64,000 nucleotides of DNA from Leucobacter sp. G161 (GTDB taxonomy: Bacteria > Actinomycetota > Actinomycetes > Actinomycetales > Microbacteriaceae), in assembly GCF_001482305.1 (NCBI RefSeq), contig NZ_LOHP01000046.1, forward strand, positions 62,001-126,000. Reading direction: 5' to 3'. Under the pieces are notes generated by a model that worked only from the letters and a program-made list of their open reading frames with translations, did not search any database and was not told the origin of the DNA. Of the stretch, positions 24,752 through 62,183 are shown in pieces. The number at the start of each line of letters is the position of its first letter. The first letter of the stretch is position 1. The position numbers and the translations under genes are program-made.

Positions 24752-24771
24752 CGCTTGCTTTTTGCGAGAGG

Positions 24772-29985: not shown

Positions 29986-30008
29986 TCCAGCCCCCGATCA
30001 ATCGTTTA

Positions 30009-43670: not shown

Positions 43671-43736
43671 GGCGGCCACGTTCGCCCCACCATAGTGTGG
43701 ATCGGTGACCCGGAAGTGGGCCGAAAGGAACGAACA

Positions 43737-45111: not shown

Positions 45112-46302
45112 TTACACGACCCGTCCCGCCTGGATGACTGCTTGGCGCGCGCCCATAGCTCCCAGCACGAAGGGATCTTCAAGAGGGTTACCCGAGAGTA
45201 GGACTGCATCGCCGTAGGAACCGACCTCCATGCTCCCCAAGCGCGCGTCACCGAGAACCGCTGCGTTCCCCGCCGTCATCGAGTGCAGGGCCTCAGGCAC
45301 ACCGAGCGCCTCCACCTGCAAGGCAACCCCGCGGAGTTGTTCGTCCTCCATATCTCCCATCAGGTCGGTGCCAAATCCGACGCGAACGCCAGCTCGTACC
45401 GCCATGTTCGCTGCCTCCTGCCCCTTCGAGAGCACCTCAGCGTTCTTCGCAAGCGACACCTCGTTCAGGCCGAGTCCGGGACCCCGACGCCCCATGGCAT
45501 CGTAGGTCGCGAGCGTCGGGACGAGGAAGGTGCCCCGCCGCGCCATCTCCGTAGCAGTGGCGGCGTCGATGAGGTTTCCGTGTTCGATGCAATCGACGCC
45601 GTTCTCGATGGAATGCATGACTGACTCCGACGAATACGAATGCGCAGTGACGTACGTTCCACGGCGGTGTGCTTCGTCGGCAACCGCCTGAAGCTCCTCT
45701 GCCGAGTATTGGGGAATGCGCACCGGATCCGTGAGGGAAAACACCCCGCCCGATGTCATCACTTTGATGGCGTGGGCGCCGGTGCGCAGCCGCTCGCGCA
45801 CTGCGACCCTGAGCGCGTCGATCCCGTCAACAACCTCGCACATGTGCCCGTGTCCAAAACACACATCGACATGCTGCGAGCGCGGGTCACCGTGCCCACC
45901 GGTCTGGCTCAGTGCAGGGCCAGTGAACAGGTATCTCGGCGCGGCAAGTAGGCCTCCTTCGACGGCACGTTGCAGCCCGATGTCGCCGCCTGCGGCGTCG
46001 CGTACGGTCGTAAACCCGCGCTCAAGCGCAGCCCTCAGCCGATGAGTGGCGTTGAGCGCCGCGTAGCTCAGCTGGCCGCGCTCGTTCTCGAGCCCGTCCA
46101 TGCTGAGCGCGTAGGCATGAAAGTGCGCATCGATGAGACCGGGAATCACCCACTGGCCTCGTCCGTCGATCTCAGTTGCATCGGCGTCGGCGCGCTCCGC
46201 AATCATTCCGCCCGAAATGATGAGATCACCCGGTTCAAAGCCACGCGCTTTTCCCCGCCAGATCTGCGTATCAACGATCACCATTGACCCTTGGCCAGTC
46301 AT
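45112..46302 (-). CDS. Metal-dependent amidohydrolase paralogue 2, with intact H-x-H
   Basis: A 396-residue amidohydrolase, very similar to the one at 42368-43552 across its whole length. PGLIDAHFHAYALSMDGLENERG keeps both His of the first metal motif; KVMTSGGVFSLTDP, TAHSYSSESVMHSIENGVDCIEHG and VRVGFGTDLMGD complete the bimetal site. It is predicted to open an amide or peptide bond, like the prolidase-type and imidazolonepropionase members of the family. The ATG at 46302 with GGGG 8 nt upstream is preferred over an ATG 18 nt later. It is the last gene of the long minus-strand catabolic run. Confidence 0.85.
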   Translation of the reverse strand: MTGQGSMVIVDTQIWRGKARGFEPGDLIISGGMIAERADADATEIDGRGQWVIPGLIDAHFHAYALSMDGLENERGQLSYAALNATHRLRAALERGFTTVRDAAGGDIGLQRAVEGGLLAAPRYLFTGPALSQTGGHGDPRSQHVDVCFGHGHMCEVVDGIDALRVAVRERLRTGAHAIKVMTSGGVFSLTDPVRIPQYSAEELQAVADEAHRRGTYVTAHSYSSESVMHSIENGVDCIEHGNLIDAATATEMARRGTFLVPTLATYDAMGRRGPGLGLNEVSLAKNAEVLSKGQEAANMAVRAGVRVGFGTDLMGDMEDEQLRGVALQVEALGVPEALHSMTAGNAAVLGDARLGSMEVGSYGDAVLLSGNPLEDPFVLGAMGARQAVIQAGRVV

Positions 46303-46396
46303 GTATTTCCCCTTCGAAATGTTCATCATTTTGCACCGTCGACTGCGTACAGGAAAGGCCCGCTGCGCACTACAGCGGACCCGTCCTGTCCCCCGG

Positions 46397-48109
46397 CTAA
46401 CGCGACGCTGCGCGCAGCTCCGCGGTTGCCGCTTCGTCGATACCGAGGTCATCAGTCAGCACGACCAGGTAGTCACGCGCGGCGGCTTCAGGCGAGACGA
46501 AGCCGTTTCGGAGGTCCTTCGCAATCGCGGCGAAATCGCGTTCGAGCGGATCTCCGTAACCACCGCCGCCACCGGTCGCGTTGACGAGCACTTCTCCAGC
46601 TTCGAGCAGATTGTAGCTGCCGCCCTGCCAGACCTCGCGCTCGGTTCCGGGGTTCAGGATCACCGCATTCGGTGTACCCTCGTTGCCGCCGGCAATGCTC
46701 CACGGGTTCGTTTGTGTCTTGTACACAAGCATGATGCCGGTTCCCGGGGCCGTATAGCGGTACGAACGGCTAATGCCGACGCCCCCACGGTGTTTACCTG
46801 CCCCAGAGCTGTCCTGCCGGTACCCGTAGTGCTCAAGAAACAGCGGAGTGCGCATCTCAAACACCTCGACCGGAGTGTTGCGACAGCCGGGCTCCGAGAG
46901 GTGCATGATGCCATCTTCGCCGTCGTGGGTTGCGGTGCCGCCAAACCCGACCGCTTCGTTACTACCGTCCTGCCACAATTCGCCGGTTCGCGGGTTCGTG
47001 CCGAGGCCAATAAACGCGCATACGTCTCCGCCCGACGCAGCAGGAATCTTGTCTGGCATCCCCTTGGCGAGCGCCTTCAAGATGACCTCGCCTGCGAGAA
47101 TTCCAGTCCACAGCGTAAACGTCGGCATTGGGTGCACCGCGTGGACGACAGAGCCTTCCTCAGTGACCACACGCATCGGAGCAAAGTTCCCGGCAACAAC
47201 GGGTGAATCCGGCGTCGTAATTGACTTGAAGATGAGGCACGATGCGGCCTCAGTGAGCCCGAGCGGCACGTTCACCGGGCCCTTAACGTTCTTTGCGCTT
47301 CCGGTCCAGTCGATCACCATCTCCTCGTCGGTGATCGTGACCGTGCACTGCAGCTTCACGAGCTGCCCGACGTCGACGCCGTCCTCGTCAACGTAGTCGA
47401 CCGCGGTCCACGTGCCCTTTGGAAGCTTCGCGAGGGCCAGACGGGAGAGCTTCTCACCGTGCTCATTGATAGCGCGCATAGCGTCGCCGAGCGTGTCCGC
47501 ACCGTACTTCGCTGCGAGCTCCTGTGTGCGCTTCACACCCGTAAAGCACGCAGAGACCTGCGACTGGATATCACCGACGGTATGACGCGGCCTCCGGCTG
47601 TTGAACTTGATGATGTTGAACACGTCTTCGTTCCGCACACCACGTCGGTACAGTTTCGAGGCGGGCAGCATGAGCCCCTCCTGCGCGAGGTCCGTCGAGT
47701 CCATCACGTACCCGGGATCCTTCTGGTTCAGATCAGTGACGTGCACGCGGCAGGTCGCGAAGCCGAGCAGCTCGTCCTCGAAGTGGATCGGAGCAAAGAC
47801 CAGCGGGTCAAGCGCATGCGCACTCGACCAGTACGGGTAGTTGAGGATGAAGACATCGCCGGGCTCCATCGCGTCTTTCCCGAGGAAATTGATGGCGTGC
47901 TTGACGCCAGCATCGTTGCCGCGGGTGAATACTGCGACACCTGGGGTGTCAGCGACGACGTCGCCGTTCGCGTCGTGGAGCCCAATGCCATAGTCATGCA
48001 CCTCGTACACGACCGTGTTGTATGCCGTGCGGCAGAGATTACGAGCGATCTCCTCAGCGGCTGCAAGCAGACCGTGTCGAATAATCTCGGTGGTGATTGC
48101 GTCTACCAT
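46397..48109 (-). CDS. hyuB: Hydantoinase B/oxoprolinase-family protein, pair 2
   Basis: A 570-residue HyuB subunit, the normal length. TAYNTVVYEVHDYGIGLHDANGDVVADTPG and GDVFILNYPYWSSAHALDPLVFAPIHF are the family's N-terminal landmarks; the metal-site loops LLGFATCRVHVTDLNQKDPG and ATGGGGGYGDPLERD near the C terminus are conserved. With the A subunit it would hydrolyse a cyclic amide such as hydantoin or 5-oxoproline using ATP. The ATG is one base after the A-subunit stop, so the two are coupled. It is the second HyuB in the region. Confidence 0.85.
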   Translation of the reverse strand: MVDAITTEIIRHGLLAAAEEIARNLCRTAYNTVVYEVHDYGIGLHDANGDVVADTPGVAVFTRGNDAGVKHAINFLGKDAMEPGDVFILNYPYWSSAHALDPLVFAPIHFEDELLGFATCRVHVTDLNQKDPGYVMDSTDLAQEGLMLPASKLYRRGVRNEDVFNIIKFNSRRPRHTVGDIQSQVSACFTGVKRTQELAAKYGADTLGDAMRAINEHGEKLSRLALAKLPKGTWTAVDYVDEDGVDVGQLVKLQCTVTITDEEMVIDWTGSAKNVKGPVNVPLGLTEAASCLIFKSITTPDSPVVAGNFAPMRVVTEEGSVVHAVHPMPTFTLWTGILAGEVILKALAKGMPDKIPAASGGDVCAFIGLGTNPRTGELWQDGSNEAVGFGGTATHDGEDGIMHLSEPGCRNTPVEVFEMRTPLFLEHYGYRQDSSGAGKHRGGVGISRSYRYTAPGTGIMLVYKTQTNPWSIAGGNEGTPNAVILNPGTEREVWQGGSYNLLEAGEVLVNATGGGGGYGDPLERDFAAIAKDLRNGFVSPEAAARDYLVVLTDDLGIDEAATAELRAASR

Positions 48110-48110
48110 T

Positions 48111-50159
48111 TCAGGCACCCTTCTGCGCGTGGTGAATAGCGATAGTGAGTTCGCCGTAGGCGCCGACCTCAAGCCGGTCACCCTCGTGCAACACTGTCGT
48201 CGCTGTATGTTCGGTGACCACAGCGGGGCCATCCAGCACATCGCCGGCAAGCAGTGACTCGCGAGCCACGAGCGCGTAGTCGACGGTGATATCTCCCGGG
48301 AGCACGACCTGACGAATGCCTCGTTCGAAACTCTCACCCGGTGCGCGCCGTGCTGCACGAGGCAAATCTGGCTTATCGACGACGCCAACGGCCATCAGCC
48401 GCAGTGTCGTGAGCTCGATCGGATCGTCCATGACATGGCCGTACTGCCGCTCGTGCAGGTCGTTGAACTGGGCTGAGATCTCGGTGCGCGGATCACTGCT
48501 GTCTGCCGGCAGCTCGACCGACACGGAGTGCTCTTGTCCGAGGTAACGCACATTGACGGATCGGTGGAAGCGGCGTGCCTCAGGTCCGAAACCTTCTGAG
48601 CCGAGCAGCTCGGCCGCTTCACGCTCCATATCCGCGAAAAAGGCGTCAGCACGCGCCGGGTCGAGTTCGTCGAGCAGTTCGACGCAGGTACGCGAGAGGT
48701 CGTGCTGCACGTCAGCCATAAGCATGCCGAGCGCCGAAAAGGCGCCCTGGCCGGGTGGCACAATCACCTCTGGAATGCCGAGTTCACGTGCGACATCAAC
48801 GGCGACCAGTCCACCACCGCCGCCAAACGAGAGCAGCGAGAAGTCCTTCGGATCGTGCCCGAGTTCGATCGAGATCGCACGCACGGCACCCATGATTTTG
48901 GTGTTCGAGATACGGACCATGCCGCGGGCCAACTCGGTCTCGGTAATCCCCATCTCTGCCGCAATTGCGCGCAGCGATGCCAGCGCCCTCTCGCGGTCGA
49001 GGGTGAGTTCACCACCGAGCGGTGTGTCAGTGCCGAGGTATCCAATGGCGAGGGCTGCATCGGTGAACGTCGGCTCGGTCCCGCCGCGACCGTACGCCGC
49101 CGGACCGGGCACCGCTCCTGCACTCTTCGGCCCCACCTGCAAGCCGCCAGCGTCATCGAGGTAGCCGAGCGAACCGCCCCCGGCTCCGATCGTGTGGATG
49201 TAGAGCGACGGAGTGTTAATGGGGAGGCCCTCAAACTCAGCGCCGTGGTACAGCACCGGGCTCCCGTCGAGCACGAGTGACGCGTCCAGGCTCGTGCCAC
49301 CCATGTCGATCGTGATGAGGTTCGGTCGGTCAATGAGCTTCGAGAAGCCGGCCGCTCCGACCACGCCTCCAGCCGGGCCGGAAAGGATGAGGTTCACAGG
49401 CTGCTCGCGGGCCGTCGATGCGGTCATCGCACCGCCACCAGAGCGGGACATCAGGAATCGGCCGTCAAAACCACGCTCTGCGAGCTCGCCCTCGAGCGTA
49501 CGCAGGTAGTTGTGCATGATCGGCTTGATGTACGCATCAAGCACGGCAGTGCTCGTGCGCTCGCATTCGCGGTATTCACGGGAGAGCTCGTGCGAGATGG
49601 TCACCTGCACCTCGGGCGCCTCCTCGCGGAGGATCTCACGCATCCGTTGCTCGTGCTGCGGCGCGACGTAGGAGTGCAGGAAGGTCACAGCAACCGCGTC
49701 GTACCCGCGCCTCGCGATCTCACGGGCAAGCTCGCGCGCCTCCGCTTCATCGAGCGGCACCGCAACCGAGCCGTCAAACAGACTCCGCTCGGTGACCTCG
49801 AACGTGTCGAAACGCTCGAGCAGCGCCGCCGGCTTGCGGTAGGCGATGTCGTACATCGGTACACGGTCGGTGCGGCCCAGCAGGTACACGTCGCGGAAAC
49901 CGCGAGTGGCAATCGTCGCGATCCGGGCACCGGTGCGGGTGAGCAGCGCGTTCAGGCCGAGCGTGCTGCCGTGATTGAACATTTCGACGCCCGCGCGGTC
50001 TGCTTCGGCCTTGCTGAACGCTGCGAGCACGCCCTCTGCGGGCGCATTCGGGGTCGTCGGCACCTTCTCAAATCGCAGTTCACCGGTCTCGGGGACGAGC
50101 TTCACGACATCGGTGAACGTTCCCCCCACATCGATGGCTACGCGGACACGTTCGTTCAT
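48111..50159 (-). CDS. hyuA: Hydantoinase A/oxoprolinase-family protein, pair 2
   Basis: A 682-residue ASKHA-fold A subunit. The phosphate-1 loop is VAIDVGGTFTDVVKL; LNALLTRTGARIATIATRGFRDV and GYDAVAVTFLHSYVAPQHEQRMREIL follow; the hydantoinase A core includes LMSRSGGGAMTASTAREQPVNLILSGPAGGVVGAAG and ITIDMGGTSLD. It transfers phosphate from ATP to the lactam. It is translationally linked to the B subunit downstream and preceded by a small ABM-like protein. The ATG has AAAGGAGAAA upstream. Confidence 0.9.
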   Translation of the reverse strand: MNERVRVAIDVGGTFTDVVKLVPETGELRFEKVPTTPNAPAEGVLAAFSKAEADRAGVEMFNHGSTLGLNALLTRTGARIATIATRGFRDVYLLGRTDRVPMYDIAYRKPAALLERFDTFEVTERSLFDGSVAVPLDEAEARELAREIARRGYDAVAVTFLHSYVAPQHEQRMREILREEAPEVQVTISHELSREYRECERTSTAVLDAYIKPIMHNYLRTLEGELAERGFDGRFLMSRSGGGAMTASTAREQPVNLILSGPAGGVVGAAGFSKLIDRPNLITIDMGGTSLDASLVLDGSPVLYHGAEFEGLPINTPSLYIHTIGAGGGSLGYLDDAGGLQVGPKSAGAVPGPAAYGRGGTEPTFTDAALAIGYLGTDTPLGGELTLDRERALASLRAIAAEMGITETELARGMVRISNTKIMGAVRAISIELGHDPKDFSLLSFGGGGGLVAVDVARELGIPEVIVPPGQGAFSALGMLMADVQHDLSRTCVELLDELDPARADAFFADMEREAAELLGSEGFGPEARRFHRSVNVRYLGQEHSVSVELPADSSDPRTEISAQFNDLHERQYGHVMDDPIELTTLRLMAVGVVDKPDLPRAARRAPGESFERGIRQVVLPGDITVDYALVARESLLAGDVLDGPAVVTEHTATTVLHEGDRLEVGAYGELTIAIHHAQKGA

Positions 50160-50201
50160 TCGGTTTCTCCTTTTGGATCTGCCGACATCTAGATGACGGT
50201 G

Positions 50202-50519
50202 CTACGACGCGCGTTCGACACGGTGGTCGACGCGGAACAGTCGTCCCACACCGACTTCAGCACCCTCGAGCAGTTCTTGCAGTTCGGGCGCGGTGCGCAA
50301 GCGCTGGGGATGGTCGAGCCACTCCTGATACCCAGCCTCATCAGGCCATTCGGCGCTCACAATGATCTCGCCCGACCCATCTGCGGCGAGCGCGATGTCC
50401 GATGAAAGCTGTCGGGTGAGGTCGAGGGACTCTTGGAGAATCAACTCGCGCCGGTAGAGCTCGAGGATACGCTCGGCCTTCTCCGGTGTGGTGCGCAGGG
50501 TAAGAACTGAACGGATCAT
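50202..50519 (-). CDS. Small ABM-like (antibiotic biosynthesis monooxygenase fold) protein
   Basis: A 105-residue dimeric alpha+beta barrel protein. MIRSVLTLRTTPEKAERILELYRRELILQESLDLT fits the first strand-helix of ABM/heme-oxygenase-like proteins, and EIIVSAEWPDEAGYQEWLDHPQR fits the W-x-x-x-x-x-(Y/F)-x-x-(W/H) helix. It could be a cofactor-independent monooxygenase, or just a structural member of the fold. The ATG at 50519 has GGAGGA 7 nt upstream. It sits between the PucR-type regulator and hyuA. Confidence 0.65.
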   Translation of the reverse strand: MIRSVLTLRTTPEKAERILELYRRELILQESLDLTRQLSSDIALAADGSGEIIVSAEWPDEAGYQEWLDHPQRLRTAPELQELLEGAEVGVGRLFRVDHRVERAS

Positions 50520-50656
50520 GCGGGTGCTCCTCCTCGAGACAACGTGCGGAAATGTTCCAGCAACAGCGAGAGTACTTCCGGGGGCGCCCACACCCTTGGG
50601 CATACTGCACAGCCCGAGCGCTAACTCGTGTGAGTTTCGCAAGGAGGGTCGGGAAA

Positions 50657-52147
50657 TCAGCCGTTTCGGAGCACGCTGGCGAGCAGCATGTGCACGGACA
50701 GCACCTCAGTGGGATCAGCGAGGGGGACGCCGAGCTCGTCTGCTCGCCGGAGCCTCGTCTGCAGCGTGTTCCGGTGCACCCCGAGCATCTCGGCCGCGCG
50801 CGAGACTGATCCGCGTGCCGACAGGAACGGCACGGCGGCCGCAATAATCTCGCCCGAGGCCGCATCTCCCATGAGGTCTGGGAAAATCCGCGCCGCCAGC
50901 TTGTCCGCGAGTTCCGCCGGGACAAGCCGGTCGAGTAGGCGCGACGGTATCTCTGCGAACTCGATGACGTTGGTTTCTCGCGCCCTCTCAGGCCAAGCCA
51001 TTCGCGCGGCAAGCCACGCTTCACGCACACTCTCGAGTAGTTCCGTCGGGCTGCTCCGCTGCTCAGCGACGCCCACGCCAGCCCCCAGCGGACCGACTTC
51101 CCCGAACCCTGCGCGAACATCGTTGACGATGGTATCTCGTGCCACTCTTCCCGCCGTCGGCACGAATGCAAGCCAGCCATCGGCGATGGCCGTCAGGGGC
51201 ACCTCGGGATAGAAGCGCTGCCAGATGTGGTGCACGACAGCACCAACGCTCGCTGGCTCGGCAGCGAGGATGCACACGGTGCGGTATCGCTCTCCCAGCG
51301 TGTGCGCTCCACGCAGCGCCGCTTCCCGACTCGGCGCATCGAGCAAACCGAGTTCTGCCGACCCGATCAGAGATGCAATCGACATCGCTGGCAACGAGTC
51401 AAGGATCGAATTCAGTCGCGACTCGAACAGCAGCGAACGGAAAATTGGCACCGCGGCACGCAACGCCTGCTCGGCGTACTCTCGGGTACGACGCCCCGTC
51501 CCGATGAGGACGAGCTCAGCAGATGTCACGCCCTGAGGTATCTCGACGACAATAGGGTCGCCGTCGCCCCCGTCTCCGGTGAACACGTCGGAGCTGGGTG
51601 CTGACTCTGCGAAGTCGAGCGTGACAGTTCCTGACACACGAATTTGCACTCGGGCGCCGCCGAACTCCCGCGAAATCTGCGCCGCGAGCGCTGTCGGCGT
51701 CGCGGCCTGCGTGATCTCATCGACAAACGCCTGCACCCGCGCCATGACGCCGGCACGCGCGATACCGAGCTGAATGGCAAGGGCAATACTCAGTTGCGTC
51801 ACATCTCGGGTTGTCGTGAGCAGGGCCACGTTGAGTCGACGAGCCAGTTCCACGGTCGCCTCAGTTACAGCCTGTTCTGGCGCAAGCACCGCGCAGGCTC
51901 TCCGCTCCCAGGCGTACCGCAGTGCGGCGGAAACCATCCAGCCACCAGCGGAGACGTGATTGCTGAGCAGGACGATCGTGTCTGGAGCAACTTCGGTAAT
52001 TTCTTCGATGTCACTAATCAGCGCTAGATCTTGCACGAGCGTCGGCTCTGAGGGCTGAAAGCGAGCGGTGAGGTCTTGAGCGAGTTTCGACTCGGTCAAA
52101 TCCTGTAGCTCGACGGCATAGCTTCCACGGGCAGTCGACCCAATCAT
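50657..52147 (-). CDS. PucR-family transcriptional regulator
   Basis: A 496-residue regulator. The N-terminal sensory part resembles the PucR-class purine-catabolism domain (about 25-135: ALISDIEEITEVAPDTIVLL, ALRYAWERRACAVLAPEQAVTEATVELARRLNVALLTT). A GGDEF-like or CdaR region is in the middle (GVGVAEQRSSPTELLESVREAWLAARMA), and the C-terminal helix-turn-helix is SVSRAAEMLGVHRNTLQTRLRRADEL, the HTH_30 form. It overlaps the DUF917 gene by 4 bp. Members of this family activate purine, hydantoin or ureide catabolism, so it is a plausible activator of the surrounding operon. Confidence 0.85.
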   Translation of the reverse strand: MIGSTARGSYAVELQDLTESKLAQDLTARFQPSEPTLVQDLALISDIEEITEVAPDTIVLLSNHVSAGGWMVSAALRYAWERRACAVLAPEQAVTEATVELARRLNVALLTTTRDVTQLSIALAIQLGIARAGVMARVQAFVDEITQAATPTALAAQISREFGGARVQIRVSGTVTLDFAESAPSSDVFTGDGGDGDPIVVEIPQGVTSAELVLIGTGRRTREYAEQALRAAVPIFRSLLFESRLNSILDSLPAMSIASLIGSAELGLLDAPSREAALRGAHTLGERYRTVCILAAEPASVGAVVHHIWQRFYPEVPLTAIADGWLAFVPTAGRVARDTIVNDVRAGFGEVGPLGAGVGVAEQRSSPTELLESVREAWLAARMAWPERARETNVIEFAEIPSRLLDRLVPAELADKLAARIFPDLMGDAASGEIIAAAVPFLSARGSVSRAAEMLGVHRNTLQTRLRRADELGVPLADPTEVLSVHMLLASVLRNG

Positions 52148-54509: not shown

Positions 54510-54589
54510 GTGCTTCCTTTGCATGCTTGAACACTACTCGTCGGAACCATGGTCTTCACCGGGCGCCCGCGCGCCCGGGCGCGACGCTG

Positions 54590-55579
54590 CTAGCGTTTCC
54601 GCAGGCGTTGCACGAGCAGACTGTCAGCAGCCACCGCGATCAGGATCAGCGCACCCGTCACGACCTGCTGGTAAGTGGTGTCCCACCCCATGAGGTTAAA
54701 GCCGTTCGCAATCACGGTGAGGATGAGGACGCCCACTGCGGTGCGCCAGACAGCGCCCGAGCCACCCATGATGCTGGTTCCTCCGATGACAACCGCCGCG
54801 ATAGCCGTCAGTTCAAGCCCGGTCGCCATCGCGGGCTGCGCGGATCCCGCACGGGATGCGAGCACCATGCCGGCGGCAGAGCTGCACAGGCCACTGATCG
54901 CAAAGACCGAAATGTGGATCAACTCCGTGCGCACCCCGCTCAGCCTGGCTGCTTCGGGGTTCCCTCCCACCGCGTAGATACGGCGGCCGTAGGTCGTGCC
55001 CCAGAGCACGAGCCCAAAGACAACCAGCCCGACGACGAGCAGCAGCGTTGCCGCGGATACTCCGCCGAACACCGAGCGCGTCCAGACTCGAAAGCCCTCG
55101 AGCTGGTCGCCGAGCGGGGCTACGATGGCCCCCGCGGTGAGCACGACCGCCAACCCGCGGTAGATAATGCTCATCGCAAGGGAGCCGATGAATGAGTGCA
55201 CCTTGGTCGCGACAATGAGTGTGCCTGTCAACGCGCCAAGAGCGGCTCCAACGCCCAGGGCAAGCACAAACCCGAGGCCGACACCGAACGCTTGTGTGAG
55301 GTACACGCCAATAATCGCGGAGAGCGCAAGATTGGCGCTCGCCGAGAGGTCAAAGACGCCGCTCGTGATACACAGGGTCGCCCCAATCGCGATAAGGCCG
55401 ATCACCACTGCCTGGTCGAGCAGGTTCACGAGGTTCTGTGATGAGAGGAACGTATCGGTAGAGACGGAAAGGAAAATCACCAGCACCAGGAGCCCGATGA
55501 GCACTCCGTAGTCCTTCAGATCAATCCTGAATCGACGTCGCGTGGATGCGGGTTCAACCGCAATAGTCTCGGTTTTCAT
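54590..55579 (-). CDS. Ribose/autoinducer-2-type ABC transporter permease (RbsC-like)
   Basis: A 329-residue permease with about ten hydrophobic segments, of the BPD_transp_2 family: LLVLVIFLSVSTDTFLSSQNLVNLLDQAVVIGLIAIGATLCITSG, SIIYRGLAVVLTAGAIV, and AIAAVVIGGTSIMGGSGAVWRTAVGVLILTVIANGFNLMGW (the conserved loop). It would carry a small polar solute. It is 14 bp after the ATPase gene and 80 bp before the next start, so it belongs to the same run. Confidence 0.9.
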   Translation of the reverse strand: MKTETIAVEPASTRRRFRIDLKDYGVLIGLLVLVIFLSVSTDTFLSSQNLVNLLDQAVVIGLIAIGATLCITSGVFDLSASANLALSAIIGVYLTQAFGVGLGFVLALGVGAALGALTGTLIVATKVHSFIGSLAMSIIYRGLAVVLTAGAIVAPLGDQLEGFRVWTRSVFGGVSAATLLLVVGLVVFGLVLWGTTYGRRIYAVGGNPEAARLSGVRTELIHISVFAISGLCSSAAGMVLASRAGSAQPAMATGLELTAIAAVVIGGTSIMGGSGAVWRTAVGVLILTVIANGFNLMGWDTTYQQVVTGALILIAVAADSLLVQRLRKR

Positions 55580-55593
55580 TATTCTTGCTTCTC

Positions 55594-57117
55594 CTAGAGG
55601 AAGGCGGTGGCCATGATGGTGTCGGGCGAGACCGAGCGGTCGTACTCGGCGACGATGCGGCCCTGGCGCATCACGGCTAGTCGGTGGGAGATCGAAAGCA
55701 CTTCTTCGAGTTCGGAGCTCGCTACAACGACGGCTGTGCCGCGCTCCGCTAGCTCGATGATGAGGTTATGAATGTTCGCCTTCGCTGCAATATCGACTCC
55801 GCGAGTTGGTTCGTCGATGAGGAACACCTCGGGCGGGTTGATGAGCCACTTTGCAAAGAGCGCTTTCTGCTGGTTACCACCGGACAGCGCCCCGACGGAC
55901 ACGCGCCTCACCTTGCCGCGGATATCAACACGGGCGGCAACGTGGTCCACCACGCTTCGCTCGACCCCCTGCCGCACGAACCCCGCTATCTGGCGCGAGT
56001 CGAGTGACGGCAGTGCGATATTCTCTGCGGCCGACCGCCCGAGGACGAGTCCCTGGTCCTTGCGGGATTCCGGGACGAGTGCGACCCCGCTGCGAATCGC
56101 GTGCCTGATGGAATTCTTGCGCACTCGACGCCCGTTGACGTGCACCTCTCCCGAGGTGACACGGTCGCTCCCAAACACAGCGTTCAACGTTTCGCTGCGG
56201 CCGCTTCCCATCAGCCCGACAAGCCCAAGAATCTCGCCCTGACGCACGTTCAATGTGATATCAGATATCGCTGAGGTGGTGAGTTTGTCGGCGCTCAGCA
56301 CCACCGGCGCTCCATCGGCAACAGGCCGTGGCGAACGGGCCAGCGCTTCCACCTGCCGACCCACCATGAGCTGCACAAGGCTGTCAGAGTCGTGACCGCG
56401 CGCTGACTCAGTGACAATCTGATCGCCATCACGCAGCACCGTGATGCGATCAGCGATCCCTAAGATCTCCTCGAGGAAGTGGGAGACAATCACAATCGTG
56501 GTGCCACCTGCCGCAAGACGGCGAATAACGGCAAGGAGGTTCTCTGTGTCAGCCTCCCCCAGCGCGGCAGTTGGCTCATCGAAACAGATCACCTTCGACC
56601 CGCGCGCGATCGCTTTGAGGATTTCGACCTGCTGCGCCTGCCCGAGGGAGAGGCTTGACACCTGCGCATCCGGGTCTAGGTCGAAGCCGCTTTCTGCAAT
56701 CAGGGTGGCGAGTTGCGCTCGGTCTCTTGCCTGCCGGACGAGTCCGTAGGTGTTCGTCCACCTGCCGAGGAAAACGTTCTCCATCACTGAGCGAGCCGGC
56801 ACCGGTGCCAGCTCCTGTGAGATCAGTGAAATGCCGTGGTCAATGGCGGAGCGAGGGTTGCCGAGCTTGGTCGGGACCCCGTCGAACAGCACCGTTCCGG
56901 AGTCGGCAGAAATCGCGCCTCCCAGGATCTTCAGCAGGGTCGATTTGCCTGCCCCGTTTTCGCCAAGCAGTCCGTGGATCTCTCCCGGTTCGATCGTCAG
57001 CGAAACATCGCGCAGCACCGACGTTCCGCCATAGCTTTTCCCGACTGCTTCGAGTGTGATGTGTGGCGCCTTGGCCTCCGCACGAGATTGCGTCTGCATT
57101 ATCTGGGCGTTGTTCAT
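55594..57117 (-). CDS. Ribose-type ABC transporter ATP-binding protein with two ATPase domains (RbsA-like)
   Basis: A 507-residue tandem ATPase. Domain 1 (about 20-255): Walker A GENGAGKST, signature LSLGQAQQVEILKAI, Walker B VICFDEPTAALGE. Domain 2 (about 265-505): Walker A-like GLMGSGRSE, signature SGGNQQKALFAKWL, Walker B EVFLIDEPTRGVD. The degenerate first loop of domain 2 is usual for RbsA. The ATG at 57117 has GGAGGTGG upstream. It powers the RbsC-like permease; the solute is unknown but presumably the amide or hydantoin broken down by the neighbours. Confidence 0.9.
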   Translation of the reverse strand: MNNAQIMQTQSRAEAKAPHITLEAVGKSYGGTSVLRDVSLTIEPGEIHGLLGENGAGKSTLLKILGGAISADSGTVLFDGVPTKLGNPRSAIDHGISLISQELAPVPARSVMENVFLGRWTNTYGLVRQARDRAQLATLIAESGFDLDPDAQVSSLSLGQAQQVEILKAIARGSKVICFDEPTAALGEADTENLLAVIRRLAAGGTTIVIVSHFLEEILGIADRITVLRDGDQIVTESARGHDSDSLVQLMVGRQVEALARSPRPVADGAPVVLSADKLTTSAISDITLNVRQGEILGLVGLMGSGRSETLNAVFGSDRVTSGEVHVNGRRVRKNSIRHAIRSGVALVPESRKDQGLVLGRSAAENIALPSLDSRQIAGFVRQGVERSVVDHVAARVDIRGKVRRVSVGALSGGNQQKALFAKWLINPPEVFLIDEPTRGVDIAAKANIHNLIIELAERGTAVVVASSELEEVLSISHRLAVMRQGRIVAEYDRSVSPDTIMATAFL

Positions 57118-57210
57118 TGCCGTCCACCTCCGTAACTGTGTTCTGTGCTGGTGTGATGCGCAGGAAAACTCCTGAGGTGGGTGGGCGGCGCCCACCCACC
57201 CCAGCGTGAA

Positions 57211-58221
57211 TTACTCTTCGTAACCGGAAACGAAATCAGCCTCGTTCAAGACGTCAGTTGTCCCGAGCCCGCCATTCGGGGCGAGCGAGGCCTGGTCGAT
57301 TGCGGTTTCCACGTCTTCGCCCTTCGCGTGTTTGAGACCGAGGTCGGCCGCAATCCGACCGTTACCGACGACGTCAAGCGCCCAGATCGCAAACCACTCC
57401 CCGCTGCGCACCTTCTCGACCGCTGACTGCGGGCTCCCGTTGCCGATGAACTTCACCTTCGAGTCCGGTCCTGCGACCAGTGCGGCGCCGGCGATGGCCT
57501 GGGTCGAACCAATAACGACGTCGACGTCAGGGTTCGCCTGGGTAATGTCCTGGAATGCAGCGCGACCCTCATCCTGGGAGTACCCACCGGTCACCGTGGG
57601 CAACGTGGCGATGCTGCTGTCGGCCTGAAGCGTGTCGAGTACCGCCTTCGTGCGGGCGTTTTCGAGGGGAAGCGCGGGGTTCCCTTCCATATACGCAACC
57701 TTGCAGCCCGCTCCCGCGTCCGCGCAGGCCTGCTTGCCGAGCTCTGCGAGCGCGGTGCCGTTGCCCACCGGTGGATCGACGATGCTGATGGCGCCCTCGA
57801 TCTGCGGCTCGGCGGTGTCCATCTCTGGACCGACCGGGGTGAACTCGACAACCACGGTGATTCCGGCGTCGACCGCTTTCTTCAACGGCTCCTGCACGGC
57901 GAGGTTGTCATTCGCCTGGATGATGATGACGTCATAGCGCTTCGAGGTGATTGAATCGTTGATCTGCTGCGCTTGCAGCTGCCCATCGAACTGACCGTCA
58001 ACAAAGGTGGCTTTCGCCCCTGCCTCGGCAGCGGTCTCCTCAACACCCTGGTAGACGGCCTGCGCGAACGAATTGGCGGCAGCGAAGCCGAAGAAGCCAA
58101 TCTCAAGCGCCTCGTCTCCCGAGCCCCCGGCGTCGCCGCCAGCAGAGGGAGCTGAGCACCCAACGAGCGACACTGCTCCGATGAGCCCGGCCGCGAGGCC
58201 AAGCAGAATTCTCTTATTCAT
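57211..58221 (-). CDS. Ribose-type periplasmic-binding lipoprotein
   Basis: A 336-residue binding protein with a lipoprotein signal ending GAVSLVGCSAPSAGG. The Peripla_BP_4 fold follows: LEIGFFGFAAANSFAQAVYQGVEETAAEAGAKATFVDGQFDGQLQAQQINDSITSKRYDVIIIQANDNLA, then VVVEFTPVGPEMD, the hinge PNVAY-like VAYMEGNPALP, and DVVIGSTQAIAGAALVAG. The ligand residues are not those of ribose, so the substrate class cannot be read. It is upstream of the ATPase and permease genes and follows the first hyuA-hyuB pair. Confidence 0.85.
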   Translation of the reverse strand: MNKRILLGLAAGLIGAVSLVGCSAPSAGGDAGGSGDEALEIGFFGFAAANSFAQAVYQGVEETAAEAGAKATFVDGQFDGQLQAQQINDSITSKRYDVIIIQANDNLAVQEPLKKAVDAGITVVVEFTPVGPEMDTAEPQIEGAISIVDPPVGNGTALAELGKQACADAGAGCKVAYMEGNPALPLENARTKAVLDTLQADSSIATLPTVTGGYSQDEGRAAFQDITQANPDVDVVIGSTQAIAGAALVAGPDSKVKFIGNGSPQSAVEKVRSGEWFAIWALDVVGNGRIAADLGLKHAKGEDVETAIDQASLAPNGGLGTTDVLNEADFVSGYEE

Positions 58222-58304
58222 GTGTGTTTCCTTCCAAAGTGTGAACCTGTGTCATGGCGTGGTTCCGGCGACTCAGCCGGGTCCACCCCACTCCTGGGGA
58301 TCGG

Positions 58305-59993
58305 CTACGCGCTGGGTGTGTAGCCGTAGTGTTTGGTCGCGAACGCCTCCGAGATGAAGCCGTTCTCGATGTCGTACTGCACGGAGGCGGGGTCGCGTTC
58401 GGCCGGGTTACCGAAGCCACCGCCACCACTCACATTCAGCTGGATCACGTCGCCACGCTTCATAGGCCGCGCGTTGGCCTTCAGCGCGAGCACCTCACGA
58501 TCGGTGCCTGGGTTGATCTTCACTTCAGGGCCGCTCGCATCGCCGCCGCCGAAAATGCCCCACGGCGGAGTCTGGGACCGCTCGAACCACAGCCCCACCA
58601 CGCAGTCTGTGAGGAATTCGTAGCCGCGCGTCACGCCGTTACCACCGCGCCACTTGCCAGGTGCGCCAGAGTCCTGACGGATGCGGTACTCCGTGATCCT
58701 GAACGGGTATTTCGTCTCCACCATCTCGATCGGCAGGTCTTGCAGCGAACCATTCACGCTATTGATCAGCGCGGACTCACCGTCTGAGCCCTCCCACGCG
58801 CCCCAGCCACCGAGCGTCGCTTCCATCGTCACCCAGTTCCGTGAGGTCCTCGGGTCGAACCCCGCGGTCGTAATAATCATCGAGTCACCGTGCGAGGCGG
58901 CAACAACGCGCCCCGGGATCGCGGGTGCGAGGGCTTTGGCGACAAGATCGATCAGCAAGCCGAGATGTGAGAAGTACCACTGGCACGCCGCCGGGGCTAC
59001 TGCGCCAAGCACCGACCCCTCGCGCACCTGCGTCGTCATCGCTCGAAACGAGCCACCATTCGAATTCGTGTCGGGACTCACAAGCAGCTTGTACCCAACG
59101 CGGAGCGCCGATACCGCCTGAGCGACACCGCAGTTCACTGGGCCACGCGTCTGGTCGGCAGACTCGGTCACGTCGAAATCGATCGTGCCACCAGCGACCG
59201 TAACCCGGAGCTTGATCGGAATGGTGCGCTCAAGGTCAATGCCGTCATTGTCGAGCATGCCTTCGGCCTCGTACACACCATCCGGTATCGCTTCGACAAC
59301 CTCGCGCTCAATCTCTGCAGTCTGCCGAAAGATCTCGTCCCGAGCTTCCTCAACTGCCCCAAGGCCGTAGCGCGAGACCAGCTCCTGCATTCGGATCGTC
59401 CCCATGCGCAGGGCCGCGATCATCGCGTTCATATCACCGATGGTTTGGTACGGGAATCGCACGTTCGTCTTGATGAGGTCGACGACGTGGGTCTGTTTGC
59501 CCGCCTCGTGCAGCTTCACCGGCCCCATCCGGAAGCCTTCCTGGAAAATATCAACCGAGTCCATCGACCCACCAACGTCCTTCGAGCCCATGTCCATCCA
59601 GTGGGCCCGGGTCGCAGCGAACCCAACAAGCTGGGCATCTACGAAGACCGGCGCGAAGATCGTGACGTCGTTGAGGTGCGTGCCACCGAGGTACGAGTCG
59701 TTCAGGATCCAGACGTCGTCCTCTTTCCAGACCTCCGCGCCATAGAGTTCTTCAACCGCCATGGAGCAGGTCTCGAGGTTGCCGAGGAACAACGGCAGCC
59801 CTGCCGACTGCCCGAGTACCTGGTGCTCGGTGTCGAGGAGCGCCACGACACAGTCGCCGCCCTCGTACAGAATCGGTGAGTACGCGGAGCGAATCAGCGT
59901 CGCGTTCATATCGTTTGCCGCGCTCGTGAAGGCGTTACGAATGATTTCTACGGTAACCGGATCAATCCGGCTAGCGGCAGTAGTGCTGGACAT
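58305..59993 (-). CDS. hyuB: Hydantoinase B/oxoprolinase-family protein, pair 1
   Basis: A 562-residue HyuB subunit. DPVTVEIIRNAFTSAANDMNATLIRSAYSPILYEGGDCVVALLDTEHQVLGQSAGLPLFLG opens it as in the family; DDVWILNDSYLGGTHLNDVTIFAPVF, FAATRAHWMDMGSKDVGGSMDS and the C-terminal VSGGGGFGNPAERD are also present. It differs clearly from the second HyuB, so the two pairs are not recent copies. It would form an ATP-dependent ring-opening enzyme with the A subunit, whose stop is 3 bp upstream. Confidence 0.85.
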   Translation of the reverse strand: MSSTTAASRIDPVTVEIIRNAFTSAANDMNATLIRSAYSPILYEGGDCVVALLDTEHQVLGQSAGLPLFLGNLETCSMAVEELYGAEVWKEDDVWILNDSYLGGTHLNDVTIFAPVFVDAQLVGFAATRAHWMDMGSKDVGGSMDSVDIFQEGFRMGPVKLHEAGKQTHVVDLIKTNVRFPYQTIGDMNAMIAALRMGTIRMQELVSRYGLGAVEEARDEIFRQTAEIEREVVEAIPDGVYEAEGMLDNDGIDLERTIPIKLRVTVAGGTIDFDVTESADQTRGPVNCGVAQAVSALRVGYKLLVSPDTNSNGGSFRAMTTQVREGSVLGAVAPAACQWYFSHLGLLIDLVAKALAPAIPGRVVAASHGDSMIITTAGFDPRTSRNWVTMEATLGGWGAWEGSDGESALINSVNGSLQDLPIEMVETKYPFRITEYRIRQDSGAPGKWRGGNGVTRGYEFLTDCVVGLWFERSQTPPWGIFGGGDASGPEVKINPGTDREVLALKANARPMKRGDVIQLNVSGGGGFGNPAERDPASVQYDIENGFISEAFATKHYGYTPSA

Positions 59994-59996
59994 CGA

Positions 59997-62048
59997 TTAA
60001 TCCCCCTGGATCTCGAGGTTGCGAATAGTGAGCGCGCCGTGCGACTCCACAGTTACGGAGAATCGGGGCGGGACAACGGTGGTCGCGGTCGCCTCGACCA
60101 CGATTGCGGGGCCTTCAAAGGTGTGCCCAGCGCCGAGAACCGAGCGATCAACGATGACGGTGTCCCATTCCTGCTGTTCGAACACGACCTTGCGGCGTTC
60201 GTGCGGGGACTCTGGCGATGTCGCTGTCGGAATCTGGAGCGAATCAGTGCTGTCGAGTTCGCCGGTGACACGGGTGCGGAGCGCGACCACCTCAATGGGG
60301 GCGCCGAGCGTCGCGTGCCCGTAGCGTTCTTCGTACTGCTTGGCAAAGCGAGCACCGAGGGTCTCCATGAACCCATCTTCGAGCGGCTCTTCGGCACTCG
60401 TCAGCGGCACCGACAGGAAGAACTCCTGCATCTGATAGCGCACATCGACGGAGTGCTCGGAGAACCGGCGGTCAGCAGGGATACCCTCGTGAGCGAGTTC
60501 GTCGAGCGCGCCTCGCTCGATGTCGCGAAGCACCCGACTCATATCTGCCGTATCGAGATCCTCATCGATGAAGAAGTAGGGTTCGGTGAAGTCCTTGCGC
60601 ACATTTCCCTGCAGCATGCCCCACGCTGAGAATGCTCCCGGGAAGCGGGGAACGATCGTTTCGGCGATCCCGAGTTCCTTCGCCAGGAAGACCGCGTGCA
60701 TTGGCCTAGCCCCGCCAAAGGCGACGAGCGCGAAATCCCGCGGTTCGATCCCTCGCGAGATGGTGATGGTGCGAATAGCCTGCGCCATCTGCGAGTTGGC
60801 AACGTCGCAGATGCCCTCTGCAATCGCCGTCACGCCGAGACCAAGCCGACTCCCGACGGTCTCAAGCGCGGCCTTCGACGCATCGATATCGAGGCTCATC
60901 TGCCCACCCGCAAAGTTGCGAGGGTCCACTCGCCCGAGGATGAGGTTTGCGTCAGTGACTGTCGGTTCGGTGCCTCCGCGTCCATAGCAGGCGGGACCGG
61001 GTGTCGCCCCGGCGGAACGTGGCCCGACACGCAGGCCACCGGCTTCGATCCAGGCGACCGACCCGCCGCCGGCTCCAATCGTGTGGATGTTGACGACGCT
61101 CATGAGCAGCGGCAGCCCCTCGAGCTCGGCCTCTGTTGAGACGTCGGGCGCCCCATCGACCACCAGCGACACATCGAACGAGGTCCCGCCCATGTCCACA
61201 CCGATGAGGTTCTTTGTTGAAAGAACGTCCGTCAGCTTCTCGCCGCCGATCGCCCCACCGACAGGGCCGGACAGGAGCGTCTGTAGCGGGCGCTGCCTGG
61301 CCGACTTTGCTGTGAGAATGCCACCCGATGACTGCATAATGTGCAGTGGCACGTCAACGCCTCGTTCGATGAGTTCCTGCTCAAGATCGATGAGGTAGTT
61401 GCGTACAACGGGGCCCGTGTACGCTTCGACAACGGCGGAAGAGGTCCGCTCGTATTCACGCCACTCCTTCGCCGACTCGTGGGAGAGCGAAACCGTGAAG
61501 TCTGCTCCCAGCTCCTCGAGCAAGATCTCCCTGGTTCGCAACTCGTGCGCCGGGTTCTTGTAGCTGAAGAGGTAGGCAACGGCGACGGCGCCATGGCCCT
61601 CCGCACGCACCCGCTGGGCGGCGCGGCGAACCGCATCCTCGTCGAGTGAGACGAGCTCGTTCCCGTCGTATTCGAGGCGGCCAGCGATACCGACAACGTC
61701 CTTGCGCTCGAGAAGCGGTGCGGGCTTGCGATACTGCGCGTTGTAGAGCTCCTGCCTGGGCCCGCGTGCAATGTGGTACGAGTCTTCAACGCCATCAGTG
61801 GCGAGAAGCAACACCTGCACACCGCGGCGCTCCAGGAATGCGTTCAGGCCCTGCGTGGTGCCGTGGACCACGAAATCGATCTCTGATAATTCCTCGACAA
61901 GGGCGCCAAGGCCCTCGATGACGCCTCGACTCAGCTCCCCAGGAGTGGTAGACGCCTTAGTGGCGGTGTACTCCCGTGTGTCTTCGTTGTAGGCAACGAT
62001 GTCGGTGAACGTGCCACCGATGTCCATCGATACGCGGTACTTGCTCAA
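59997..62048 (-). CDS. hyuA: Hydantoinase A/oxoprolinase-family protein, pair 1
   Basis: A 683-residue A subunit. YRVSMDIGGTFTDIVAYNEDT is the phosphate loop; LNAFLERRGVQVLLLATDGVEDSYHIARGPRQELYNAQYRKPAPLLERKDV, VDVPLHIMQSSGGILTAKSARQRPLQTLLSGPVGGAIGG and LIGVDMGGTSFD are family landmarks. The start is taken as TTG at 62048, with GGGAGG 5 nt upstream, since homology begins there. It heads the long minus-strand run and is divergent from the RidA gene. Confidence 0.85.
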   Translation of the reverse strand: MSKYRVSMDIGGTFTDIVAYNEDTREYTATKASTTPGELSRGVIEGLGALVEELSEIDFVVHGTTQGLNAFLERRGVQVLLLATDGVEDSYHIARGPRQELYNAQYRKPAPLLERKDVVGIAGRLEYDGNELVSLDEDAVRRAAQRVRAEGHGAVAVAYLFSYKNPAHELRTREILLEELGADFTVSLSHESAKEWREYERTSSAVVEAYTGPVVRNYLIDLEQELIERGVDVPLHIMQSSGGILTAKSARQRPLQTLLSGPVGGAIGGEKLTDVLSTKNLIGVDMGGTSFDVSLVVDGAPDVSTEAELEGLPLLMSVVNIHTIGAGGGSVAWIEAGGLRVGPRSAGATPGPACYGRGGTEPTVTDANLILGRVDPRNFAGGQMSLDIDASKAALETVGSRLGLGVTAIAEGICDVANSQMAQAIRTITISRGIEPRDFALVAFGGARPMHAVFLAKELGIAETIVPRFPGAFSAWGMLQGNVRKDFTEPYFFIDEDLDTADMSRVLRDIERGALDELAHEGIPADRRFSEHSVDVRYQMQEFFLSVPLTSAEEPLEDGFMETLGARFAKQYEERYGHATLGAPIEVVALRTRVTGELDSTDSLQIPTATSPESPHERRKVVFEQQEWDTVIVDRSVLGAGHTFEGPAIVVEATATTVVPPRFSVTVESHGALTIRNLEIQGD

Positions 62049-62183
62049 GACGCCTCCCTTGGCTTCTTTGCGGTTGGTATTGGTGAGATTACGTAGTCCC
62101 GCATTGTGCGCCCAGTGCATTTCCTCCCCTGAGGAGCTGCGCGTTTGTGCATATTGCCCGAGGTGGCATCGCGAACGCCGCCT

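What the first reader, a model, noticed from the sequence alone, without database searches (positions are those of the whole stretch)
45112..62048. 17-kb minus-strand catabolic run with two hydantoinase pairs, ABC importer and own regulator
Twelve genes in one direction combine two distinct HyuA/HyuB pairs (each about 680 and 565 residues), a ribose-type importer, a DUF917/HyuA-like unit, an ABM protein and an amidohydrolase. No known pathway uses this exact set. A cyclic amide (hydantoin, oxoproline, diketopiperazine or a sulfur analogue) would be imported and opened stepwise, releasing an amino acid for the hydroxyproline enzymes nearby. This is the best candidate for an undescribed system.
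Basis: inference. Interest (0 to 1): 0.85.

Follow-up and report, generated by a model that had tools for sequence, protein, structure and literature searches.

The report
Cyclic-dipeptide route into hydroxyproline catabolism
A bacterium of the Leucobacter group carries a recurring gene set that probably imports ring-shaped amides containing proline or hydroxyproline, opens the ring with ATP and passes the freed amino acid to neighbouring proline and hydroxyproline breakdown genes; the gene set is real, its substrate is still inferred.

Summary
In detail: twelve minus-strand genes (45112-62120) encode two HyuA/HyuB pairs, a ribose-type ABC importer, a HyuA-like/DUF917 pair, a PucR regulator, an ABM-like protein and an amidohydrolase (AH). 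The run is two recurring modules joined. HyuA2 was found in 37 further loci (HyuB2 in 36, importer in 31, AH within 4 kb in 25). HyuA1B1 with HyuA-like-DUF917-PucR also occurs apart, and on two Arthrobacter-type plasmids. New here: context ties both modules to proline and hydroxyproline. PutA, PutP and a trans-3-hydroxyproline-dehydratase-like gene lie on one side, a 4-hydroxyproline gene set on the other. In 6 of 10 whole genomes (this one included) HyuA2 lies within 20 kb of the epimerase-type gene. In four Microbacterium genomes without AH beside HyuB2, its orthologue sits by the hydroxyproline cluster. AH is nearest to known Xaa-Pro prolidases. Best reading: HyuAB opens cyclo(Xaa-Pro/Hyp) diketopiperazines with ATP, AH splits Xaa-Pro/Hyp, the imino acid is catabolised. 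Pro/Hyp as product is well supported; the diketopiperazine substrate is inference. The HyuA-like and DUF917 proteins lack family glycine motifs and may be non-catalytic. Nothing was tested by experiment.

The parts
59997..62120 (-). HyuA1, ATP-binding subunit of ATP-dependent cyclic amidase (likely start 62051)
   Evidence: PF05378, PF01968, PF19278; DIGGTFTD, DMGGT and GATPGP motifs intact; about 72.5% identical copies next to an AH gene on two plasmids
58305..59993 (-). HyuB1, metal-dependent hydrolytic subunit
   Evidence: PF02538, 530 bits; an H..D...H pattern is found in 8 of 8 homologues (pattern search not tied to a position)
57211..58221 (-). Lipoprotein-type substrate-binding protein of the importer
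   Evidence: PF13407; only weak matches to sugar-binding equivalogs and PDB sugar-binding chains
55594..57117 (-). Importer ATPase, two ABC domains (ORF to 57195)
   Evidence: PF00005, two stretches; AraG 480 bits under cut-off 689
57172..57204 (-). 15-pair hairpin with T-rich tail between SBP and ATPase genes, attenuator-like
   Evidence: 14 terminator-like sites in the stretch, shuffles 9.7 +/- 3.5; this has the longest stem
54590..55579 (-). Importer permease
   Evidence: PF02653
53211..54524 (-). HyuA-like protein, shortened HyuA fold without ATP motifs
   Evidence: 0 of 23 homologues carry DxGGT, nor does the window protein; AF2 pLDDT 86.9, Foldseek to HyuA-type subunits E 8e-17 to 1e-10, TMq 0.61-0.69
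52144..53214 (-). DUF917/S-Me-THD-family protein without GxGGG motif
   Evidence: fold match 2o3i E 9e-17; motif found only in the 4 canonical paralogues among 27 sequences
50657..52147 (-). PucR-family regulator
   Evidence: PF13556 47.4 bits
50202..50519 (-). ABM-like protein
   Evidence: PF03992 E 5.5e-4, below cut-off; start codon read; homologues in 25 of 37 other HyuA2 loci, some only 30% identical
48111..50159 (-). HyuA2, ATP-binding subunit
   Evidence: DVGGTFTD, DMGGT, GAVPGP intact
46397..48109 (-). HyuB2, hydrolytic subunit
   Evidence: PF02538 503 bits; H..D...H pattern in 30 of 30 homologues
45112..46302 (-). AH1, prolidase-like amidohydrolase (COG1228 type)
   Evidence: PF01979; nearest PDB 3feq/3n2c, E 8e-84; HxH metal motif present
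43695..45080 (+). M17 aminopeptidase, convergent neighbour; a homologue also lies near HyuA2 in 5 of 37 other loci
   Evidence: PF00883
42368..43561 (-). AH2, second prolidase-like amidohydrolase, 67.8% identical to AH1, start uncertain; metal motif HFQ instead of HFH
40334..41449 (-). cis-3-hydroxyproline-dehydratase-like enolase-superfamily enzyme
   Evidence: best hit NF043002 328 bits, cut-off 500 not reached
35359..36390 (+). trans-3-hydroxyproline-dehydratase-like proline-racemase-family protein
   Evidence: best hit NF045511 286 bits, cut-off 540 not reached
33785..35293 (+). PutP sodium/proline symporter
   Evidence: TIGR02121 663 bits, over cut-off 515.5
29933..33694 (+). PutA-like, proline dehydrogenase/P5C dehydrogenase (open frame; match from 30155)
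   Evidence: 63.8% identical over 1207 aa to the annotated PutA beside the plasmid cluster
62196..62567 (+). RidA-family protein, divergent from HyuA1
   Evidence: PF01042
62705..63610 (+). DHDPS-family, candidate pyrroline-4-hydroxy-2-carboxylate deaminase (ORF from 62612)
   Evidence: PF00701; dapA model below its cut-off (150 vs 206 bits); same gene types as the S. coelicolor hydroxyproline set
63729..64000 (+). 5' part of a proline-racemase-family gene, candidate 4-hydroxyproline epimerase; continues in L047, which then holds an OCD-family reductase, a GntR regulator and the three D-hydroxyproline-dehydrogenase-like subunits

Best explanation
The run encodes import and ATP-dependent opening of cyclic amides that contain proline or hydroxyproline, most likely 2,5-diketopiperazines cyclo(Xaa-Pro/Hyp). 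Proposed steps: (1) the ribose-type ABC importer takes up the cyclic dipeptide [inferred]. (2) HyuA activates the only enolisable (secondary) amide and HyuB hydrolyses it; in cyclo(Xaa-Pro) that is the Pro-CO-NH-Xaa bond, so the product is linear Xaa-Pro [family chemistry known, this substrate inferred]. (3) The prolidase-like amidohydrolase AH cuts Xaa-Pro/Xaa-Hyp [inferred from nearest characterised relatives]. (4) Proline goes to PutA, 3-hydroxyproline to dehydratase plus pyrroline-2-carboxylate reductase, 4-hydroxyproline to epimerase, D-hydroxyproline dehydrogenase and deaminase, encoded in the same island [genes shown, activities by homology]. PucR regulates; the HyuA-like/DUF917 pair, which lacks its families' glycine motifs, is proposed as a non-catalytic ligand sensor for PucR or an accessory. 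Confidence: about 0.8 that the module's product is Pro/Hyp, about 0.5 that the substrate is a diketopiperazine.
For: Pro/Hyp genes on both sides in the window and L047. HyuA2 within 20 kb of the hydroxyproline-epimerase-type gene in 6 of 10 whole genomes (this one included), 4 of 8 genera (positions; binomial estimates 4.5e-10 by genome, 1.2e-6 by genus). Hydroxyproline DAO-type gene in 9 of 9 HyuA2 genomes of the family sample against 39 of 199 overall (Fisher 1.9e-7; G085 only just passes with a partial match). AH within 25 kb of that gene in 8 of 13 AH genomes, 5 of 9 genera; AH in 9 of 9 HyuA2 genomes against 13 of 199. Hydroxyproline genes, importer, HyuA2B2 and AH on one strand in L029, L064 and L065. 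In four Microbacterium genomes without AH beside HyuB2, the AH orthologue lies between a trans-3-hydroxyproline-dehydratase-like gene and the 4-hydroxyproline cluster. HyuA1B1-AH followed by PutA on a Paenarthrobacter plasmid. AH nearest to Sgx9260b/c, which cut Xaa-Pro dipeptides and N-acyl-prolines (PMC11511702 passage). HyuA motifs intact (compare PMC8453981 passages). A Microbacteriaceae isolate opens diketopiperazines with unknown enzymes (PMC3852281 section), and one paper suggests that genes annotated as 5-oxoprolinase may be cyclic dipeptide hydrolases (PMC6061476 passage).
Against: No substrate was tested. The diketopiperazines opened by the isolate in the section read were cyclo(Ala-Ala) and cyclo(Gly-Phe), not proline rings. 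[quoted passage not shown] A hydantoin-racemase-type gene is in both plasmid clusters and near L019, which would suit hydantoins. HyuA2 is not close to hydroxyproline genes in 4 of 10 genomes (50 kb away in G003, 1.4 Mb in G129, other contigs in G064 and G085). In the fetched flanks 4-Hyp-type genes appear in 12 of 37 loci besides the window, one of them (L037) by DHDPS alone; PutA adds L062. L033 and L066 show HyuA2B2 without importer, AH or Hyp genes nearby. Of five AH regions fetched from genomes lacking a neighbouring AH, one (L088, Streptomyces, at a contig end) shows no Hyp genes, and the genome of L033 has no AH match. No alpha-ketoglutarate-semialdehyde dehydrogenase was identified in L047. 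No M9 collagenase in G000 (1 of 17 genomes). Two HyuAB pairs imply at least two substrates. The genomes share ancestry, so the probabilities are optimistic.
Confidence: 0.52

Rival explanations
1. Hydantoin route: HyuAB opens proline- or hydroxyproline-derived hydantoins to N-carbamoyl-(hydroxy)proline, which AH hydrolyses.
For: HyuAB homologues include ATP-dependent (N-methyl)hydantoinases, the best PDB match of HyuA2 (7hk5); a hydantoin/Asp-Glu racemase-family gene lies in the two plasmid clusters and near L019; Sgx9260-type enzymes accept N-acyl-prolines.
Against: No carbamoylase is named among the features of the two plasmid clusters and none of the Pfam hits in the run is of that type; an M20 aminoacylase is annotated about 8 kb from AH on the Paraburkholderia plasmid only. 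The racemase was found in 3 loci only. Proline hydantoins are not a known abundant nutrient (general knowledge).
Confidence: 0.18
2. Pyroglutamyl-peptide route: HyuAB opens the pyroglutamyl ring of pGlu-Pro/pGlu-Hyp, giving Glu-Pro/Glu-Hyp for AH.
For: The family includes 5-oxoprolinases (passages); the Pro/Hyp context and the prolidase-like AH fit equally.
Against: Among NCBIfam hits the HyuA proteins match caprolactamase best (474 and 509 bits, cut-off 1000 not reached) and no oxoprolinase model is listed, which is weak evidence; no oxoprolinase acting on pGlu-dipeptides is known to the author.
Confidence: 0.1
3. Co-located but independent functions: HyuAB, importer and AH serve different substrates and merely sit in a catabolic island.
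For: 137-base gap between PucR and ABM; the two halves occur apart in other genomes (L051, L062); AH can sit apart from HyuAB; L033 and L066 have HyuA2B2 alone.
Against: The separated AH copies sit by the hydroxyproline cluster in 4 of 5 fetched cases; HyuA2 and AH co-occur in 9 of 9 genomes; order is conserved over several genera.
Confidence: 0.15
4. Creatinine/N-methylhydantoin to sarcosine: the sarcosine-oxidase-like genes in L047 oxidise sarcosine.
For: TIGR01372 and TIGR01373 hits below cut-off and the N-methylhydantoinase match.
Against: The same TIGR01372-type subunit belongs to the D-hydroxyproline dehydrogenase set of S. coelicolor, where deletion of the epimerase gene abolished growth on hydroxyproline (PMC6608401 passages); epimerase- and deaminase-type genes lie beside it here.
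Confidence: 0.04

Closest known systems
ATP-dependent caprolactamase CapAB (Pseudomonas jessenii) and the wider oxoprolinase/hydantoinase (ATP-dependent lactamase) family
   Same: Two subunits, ATP motifs in A, His-Asp-His metal pattern in B
   Different: About half or less of the equivalog cut-offs; linked to a prolidase-like amidohydrolase and to Pro/Hyp catabolism instead of an omega-amino-acid pathway
Sgx9260b/Sgx9260c prolidases (COG1228 amidohydrolases, PDB 3mkv, 3feq/3n2c)
   Same: Best solved-structure matches of AH1 and AH2; KxMxSGG, HxY and EHGNL blocks shared
   Different: Here next to HyuAB genes; AH2 of the window lacks one metal-motif histidine
4-hydroxyproline operon SCO6289-6293 of Streptomyces coelicolor (HypR regulon)
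   Same: Epimerase-type, DHDPS-type and three D-hydroxyproline-dehydrogenase-type genes and a GntR regulator beside the window module
   Different: The passages seen mention no HyuAB, importer or AH, but I did not search that paper for those words
Thiohydantoin / S-methyl-thiohydantoin desulfurases
   Same: S-Me-THD (DUF917) family
   Different: 48.3 and 37.2 bits against cut-offs 450 and 440; glycine motif absent

Membership tests
ATP-dependent lactamase (HyuA/HyuB) family | DxGGTxxD, DxGGT and GxxPGP ATP motifs in A subunit | tested here: met
   Both HyuA1 and HyuA2; not met by the HyuA-like protein (0 of 23 homologues with DxGGT)
ATP-dependent lactamase (HyuA/HyuB) family | Asp, His-x2-Asp, His metal ligands in B subunit | tested here: met
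   H..D...H pattern in 30 of 30 HyuB2 and 8 of 8 HyuB1 homologues, search not tied to a position; the sites of HyuB1 and HyuB2, first Asp included, were read from a pairwise alignment
ATP-dependent lactamase (HyuA/HyuB) family | ATP-dependent opening of a cyclic amide | not testable with these tools
   needs enzyme assay
Caprolactamase equivalogs (NF050156/NF050157) | score over curated cut-off 1000 | tested here: not met
   474/509 and 212/260 bits
COG1228 prolidase (Sgx9260 type) | nearest characterised relatives and HxH of the metal site | tested here: met
   AH1: 3feq E 8e-84, HxH present; 24 of 25 aligned sequences have HxH, AH2 of the window has HxQ
COG1228 prolidase (Sgx9260 type) | Xaa-Pro hydrolysis | not testable with these tools
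   needs assay; the curated Xaa-Pro dipeptidase model NF051886 is below cut-off (211 and 184 vs 500 bits)
(S-methyl)thiohydantoin desulfurase | score over curated cut-off and GxGGG motif | tested here: not met
   48.3 vs 450 and 37.2 vs 440 bits; motif absent
4-hydroxyproline catabolic cluster | epimerase, D-hydroxyproline dehydrogenase alpha/beta/gamma and DHDPS-type deaminase genes together | tested here: met
   gene types; semialdehyde dehydrogenase not identified nearby; activities not tested
Sugar (ribose/arabinose) ABC importer | equivalog scores of ATPase, permease and SBP over cut-off | tested here: not met
   best hits AraG 480 vs 689, AraH 210 vs 378, RhaS 33 vs 342

The most novel reading that the evidence does not exclude
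An apparently mobile catabolic system in which an ATP-dependent HyuAB 'diketopiperazinase' plus a prolidase-type amidohydrolase scavenges proline and hydroxyproline diketopiperazines, controlled by PucR together with a degenerate HyuA-like/DUF917 pair that has given up catalysis to sense the cyclic substrate.
Probability: 0.2. Interest if true: 0.78.

Novelty: new variant of a known kind. Interest (0 to 1): 0.6.

Why it matters
Proline diketopiperazines are common in food, fermentation and microbial products (general knowledge; several titles), yet the 2013 section read leaves open which enzymes open diketopiperazines, although a Microbacteriaceae isolate does so. If right, this names a concrete gene set (two HyuAB pairs, importer, prolidase, regulator) to test, would explain many genes annotated only as hydantoinase/oxoprolinase, and adds an entry point to hydroxyproline catabolism. 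It could also yield ATP-dependent biocatalysts for stable amide rings.

Tried and rejected
Thiohydantoin/ergothioneine catabolism: rejected, DUF917 scores far under the curated cut-offs and lacks the motif. Sugar importer: the best scores are under the curated cut-offs, but the binding protein's ligand stays unknown. Sarcosine/creatinine route: put low because the sarcosine-oxidase-like genes match the D-hydroxyproline dehydrogenase set. Collagenase in the same genomes: 1 of 17, not G000, although an M9 N-terminal fragment is annotated near one plasmid cluster. RNA families and tRNAs: none. Promoter scan uninformative (2 found, shuffles 2.5 +/- 1.6). Of 174 plasmid records with an AH match (25 listed) I inspected 7: two HyuAB-AH clusters, one AH in a proline-racemase/DHDPS cluster, two with partial hints (Thioclava: 2Fe-2S and FAD oxidoreductase genes about 10 kb off; Bosea: OCD, FAD and aldehyde dehydrogenase genes and an Xaa-Pro peptidase), one with a DHDPS gene and a symporter only (Skermanella), one with nothing of the kind (S. 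fredii).

Literature: searches showed no title or abstract start that links hydantoinase/oxoprolinase genes with prolidase or hydroxyproline catabolism; one search listed only 20 of 607 papers, and the four papers holding both 'hydantoinase' and 'prolidase' were not read for it (one of them only for a reference). 'Thiohydantoin desulfurase' gave none. The library holds open-licence papers only, so absence is weak.

Papers, what was seen: PMC3852281 passages and one section; PMC6061476, PMC8453981, PMC11511702, PMC6608401, PMC4113996 passages; PMC8301969 and PMC13081902 one reference passage each; others search listings. The Sgx9260 primary paper is not held. That HyuA needs an enolisable secondary amide is reasoning from the lactim mechanism plus general knowledge.

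Corrections: the HyuB2 query was out of frame, repeated correctly. In one search L049 (G085, same locus as L024) and L051 (no HyuA2) were left out of the count; near relatives (L015, 98% identical to the window in HyuA2; L031/L037; the Paractinoplanes set) were kept. In one search L011-L014 and L049 were left out of the family sets as duplicates.

Full report
What is there. The window is G000:C46:62001-126000 of a 3.55 Mb genome; the closest named locus is a Leucobacter MAG contig (98% identical HyuA2). Junctions run from -4 to +94 bases except 137 bases between PucR and ABM. A 15-pair hairpin lies between the binding-protein and ATPase genes.

It recurs. A scan of genome contigs with HyuA2 gave 29 loci. 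Whole-genome searches found HyuA2 in 9 of 199 genomes of the family and 2 of 396 of the phylum, G000 counted in both. After dropping one duplicate, 37 loci besides the window were compared: HyuB2 in 36, importer genes in 31, an AH gene within 4 kb in 25, ABM in 25, the HyuA-like/DUF917 pair in 22, PucR in 21, HyuA1B1 in 6. Several loci are cut by contig ends, so these are lower bounds; L033 and L066 show HyuA2B2 without the rest. L018, L025, L039 and L043 share the window's gene order (L025 without importer). Others have HyuA2B2 behind a different importer (SBP about 29-33% identical), the trio being divergent or absent. L051 has HyuA1B1, importer and trio without HyuA2B2. HyuA1 is rare (2 of 199), the HyuA-like protein was found in 5 of 199. 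So the run is two modules joined, with patchy distribution.

Link to proline and hydroxyproline. Beyond the window's right end (L047) lie a proline-racemase-family gene that starts in the window, then OCD-family, GntR, DAO, 2Fe-2S and Pyr_redox genes, after the DHDPS gene inside the window (the 2Fe-2S frame was recognised from its sequence). These are the gene types of the S. coelicolor hydroxyproline operon, where deletion of the epimerase gene abolished growth on hydroxyproline (PMC6608401 passages; superfamilies in PMC4113996 passages). No semialdehyde dehydrogenase was identified in L047. On the left lie PutA, PutP (over cut-off), and trans-3- and cis-3-hydroxyproline-dehydratase-like genes (best hits, under cut-off).

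More than chance? In the 10 whole genomes with HyuA2, the epimerase-type gene (best PF05544 hit) lies within 20 kb in 6 (G000, G014, G033, G153, G165, G360), 50 kb away in G003, on other contigs in G064 and G085, 1.4 Mb away in G129. The DAO-type gene was found in 9 of 9 HyuA2 genomes of the family sample, against 39 of 199 overall. AH is within 25 kb of it in 8 of 13 AH genomes; the others are G003 (45 kb), G148 (78 kb), G129 (1.4 Mb), G085 and G009 (not on one contig or not found). Estimates are; shared ancestry makes them optimistic, so the genus counts (4 of 8, 5 of 9) matter more. The genome's third HyuB (C67) is on a contig without proline-racemase-family hits, an internal contrast.

Telling rearrangements. 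In L029, L064 and L065 hydroxyproline genes, ABM, importer, HyuA2B2 and AH run on one strand; in L063 the importer is followed on its strand by hydroxyproline genes. Seven genomes whose HyuB2 had no adjacent AH were searched: 6 of 7 have an AH match. Of five AH regions fetched, the four Microbacterium ones (67-68% identical to the query) place AH between a trans-3-hydroxyproline-dehydratase-like gene and the 4-hydroxyproline cluster; the fifth, from Streptomyces, lies at a contig end without such genes. On Arthrobacter plasmid p232 (typed conjugative) and Paenarthrobacter pYJN5-3, HyuA-like, DUF917, PucR, a racemase, an MFS transporter, HyuA1B1 (72-78% identical), a GAF protein and AH form one cluster; only in the latter is it followed by PutA. 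A Paraburkholderia plasmid has AH in a proline-racemase/DHDPS cluster; Skermanella and S. fredii hits show little or nothing of the kind.

How it likely works. HyuA1 and HyuA2 keep the ATP motifs, HyuB1 and HyuB2 the metal pattern, of the ATP-dependent lactamase family (PMC8453981 passages), whose A subunit is thought to activate a lactim tautomer and B to hydrolyse it. Only a secondary amide has that tautomer, so in cyclo(Xaa-Pro) the Pro-CO-NH-Xaa bond would be cut, leaving Xaa-Pro, a prolidase substrate. AH1 is closest to prolidases that cut Xaa-Pro and N-acyl-prolines. This chemical fit is inference, not proof; hydantoins or pGlu-dipeptides remain possible.

The HyuA-like/DUF917 pair. The HyuA-like protein has the HyuA fold (AF2 pLDDT 86.9; Foldseek to acetone carboxylase, N-methylhydantoinase and caprolactamase subunits at 11-12% identity), but none of 23 homologues keeps DxGGT. 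The DUF917 partner folds like 2o3i but lacks the glycine motif of the four canonical paralogues examined. The DUF917 gene overlaps PucR by 4 bases. A sensing role is a proposal only; 10 of 20 aligned HyuA-like members still score with PF05378, so altered catalysis is not excluded.

Verdict. Substrate identity, expression and every enzyme activity remain untested.

Noticed in passing
window 42368-43561: AH2 carries HFQ where the other 24 of 25 aligned sequences, including the 97% identical copy in L015, have HxH at the metal site; described only.
   Followed up: partly
G000 contigs C46, C60, C64, C67 (L001-L006): The genome has six S-Me-THD/DUF917 genes, three close together on C60; the role of the other five is unknown.
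   Followed up: partly
L019:15917-21128 and L043:13870-17943: A peptide-type ABC importer (binding protein recognised from its sequence, not from a family search) lies near a prolidase-like AH gene in both loci.
   Followed up: no
L079:5040-5861, L080:4055-4858, L019 near 1703: Hydantoin/Asp-Glu racemase-family gene in or near the cluster; could mean D-configured or hydantoin substrates.
   Followed up: partly
L079:15060-15701: Annotated M9 (collagenase) N-terminal fragment near the plasmid cluster.
   Followed up: partly
window 20001-28000: G+C falls to 0.57-0.61 against about 0.63-0.67 on either side, over an ABC importer, a PrpF-family gene and a PIG-L-family gene.
   Followed up: no
L042:10001-12226: HyuA2 in Paractinoplanes deccanensis matches in two pieces, possibly a frameshift or insertion.
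   Followed up: no
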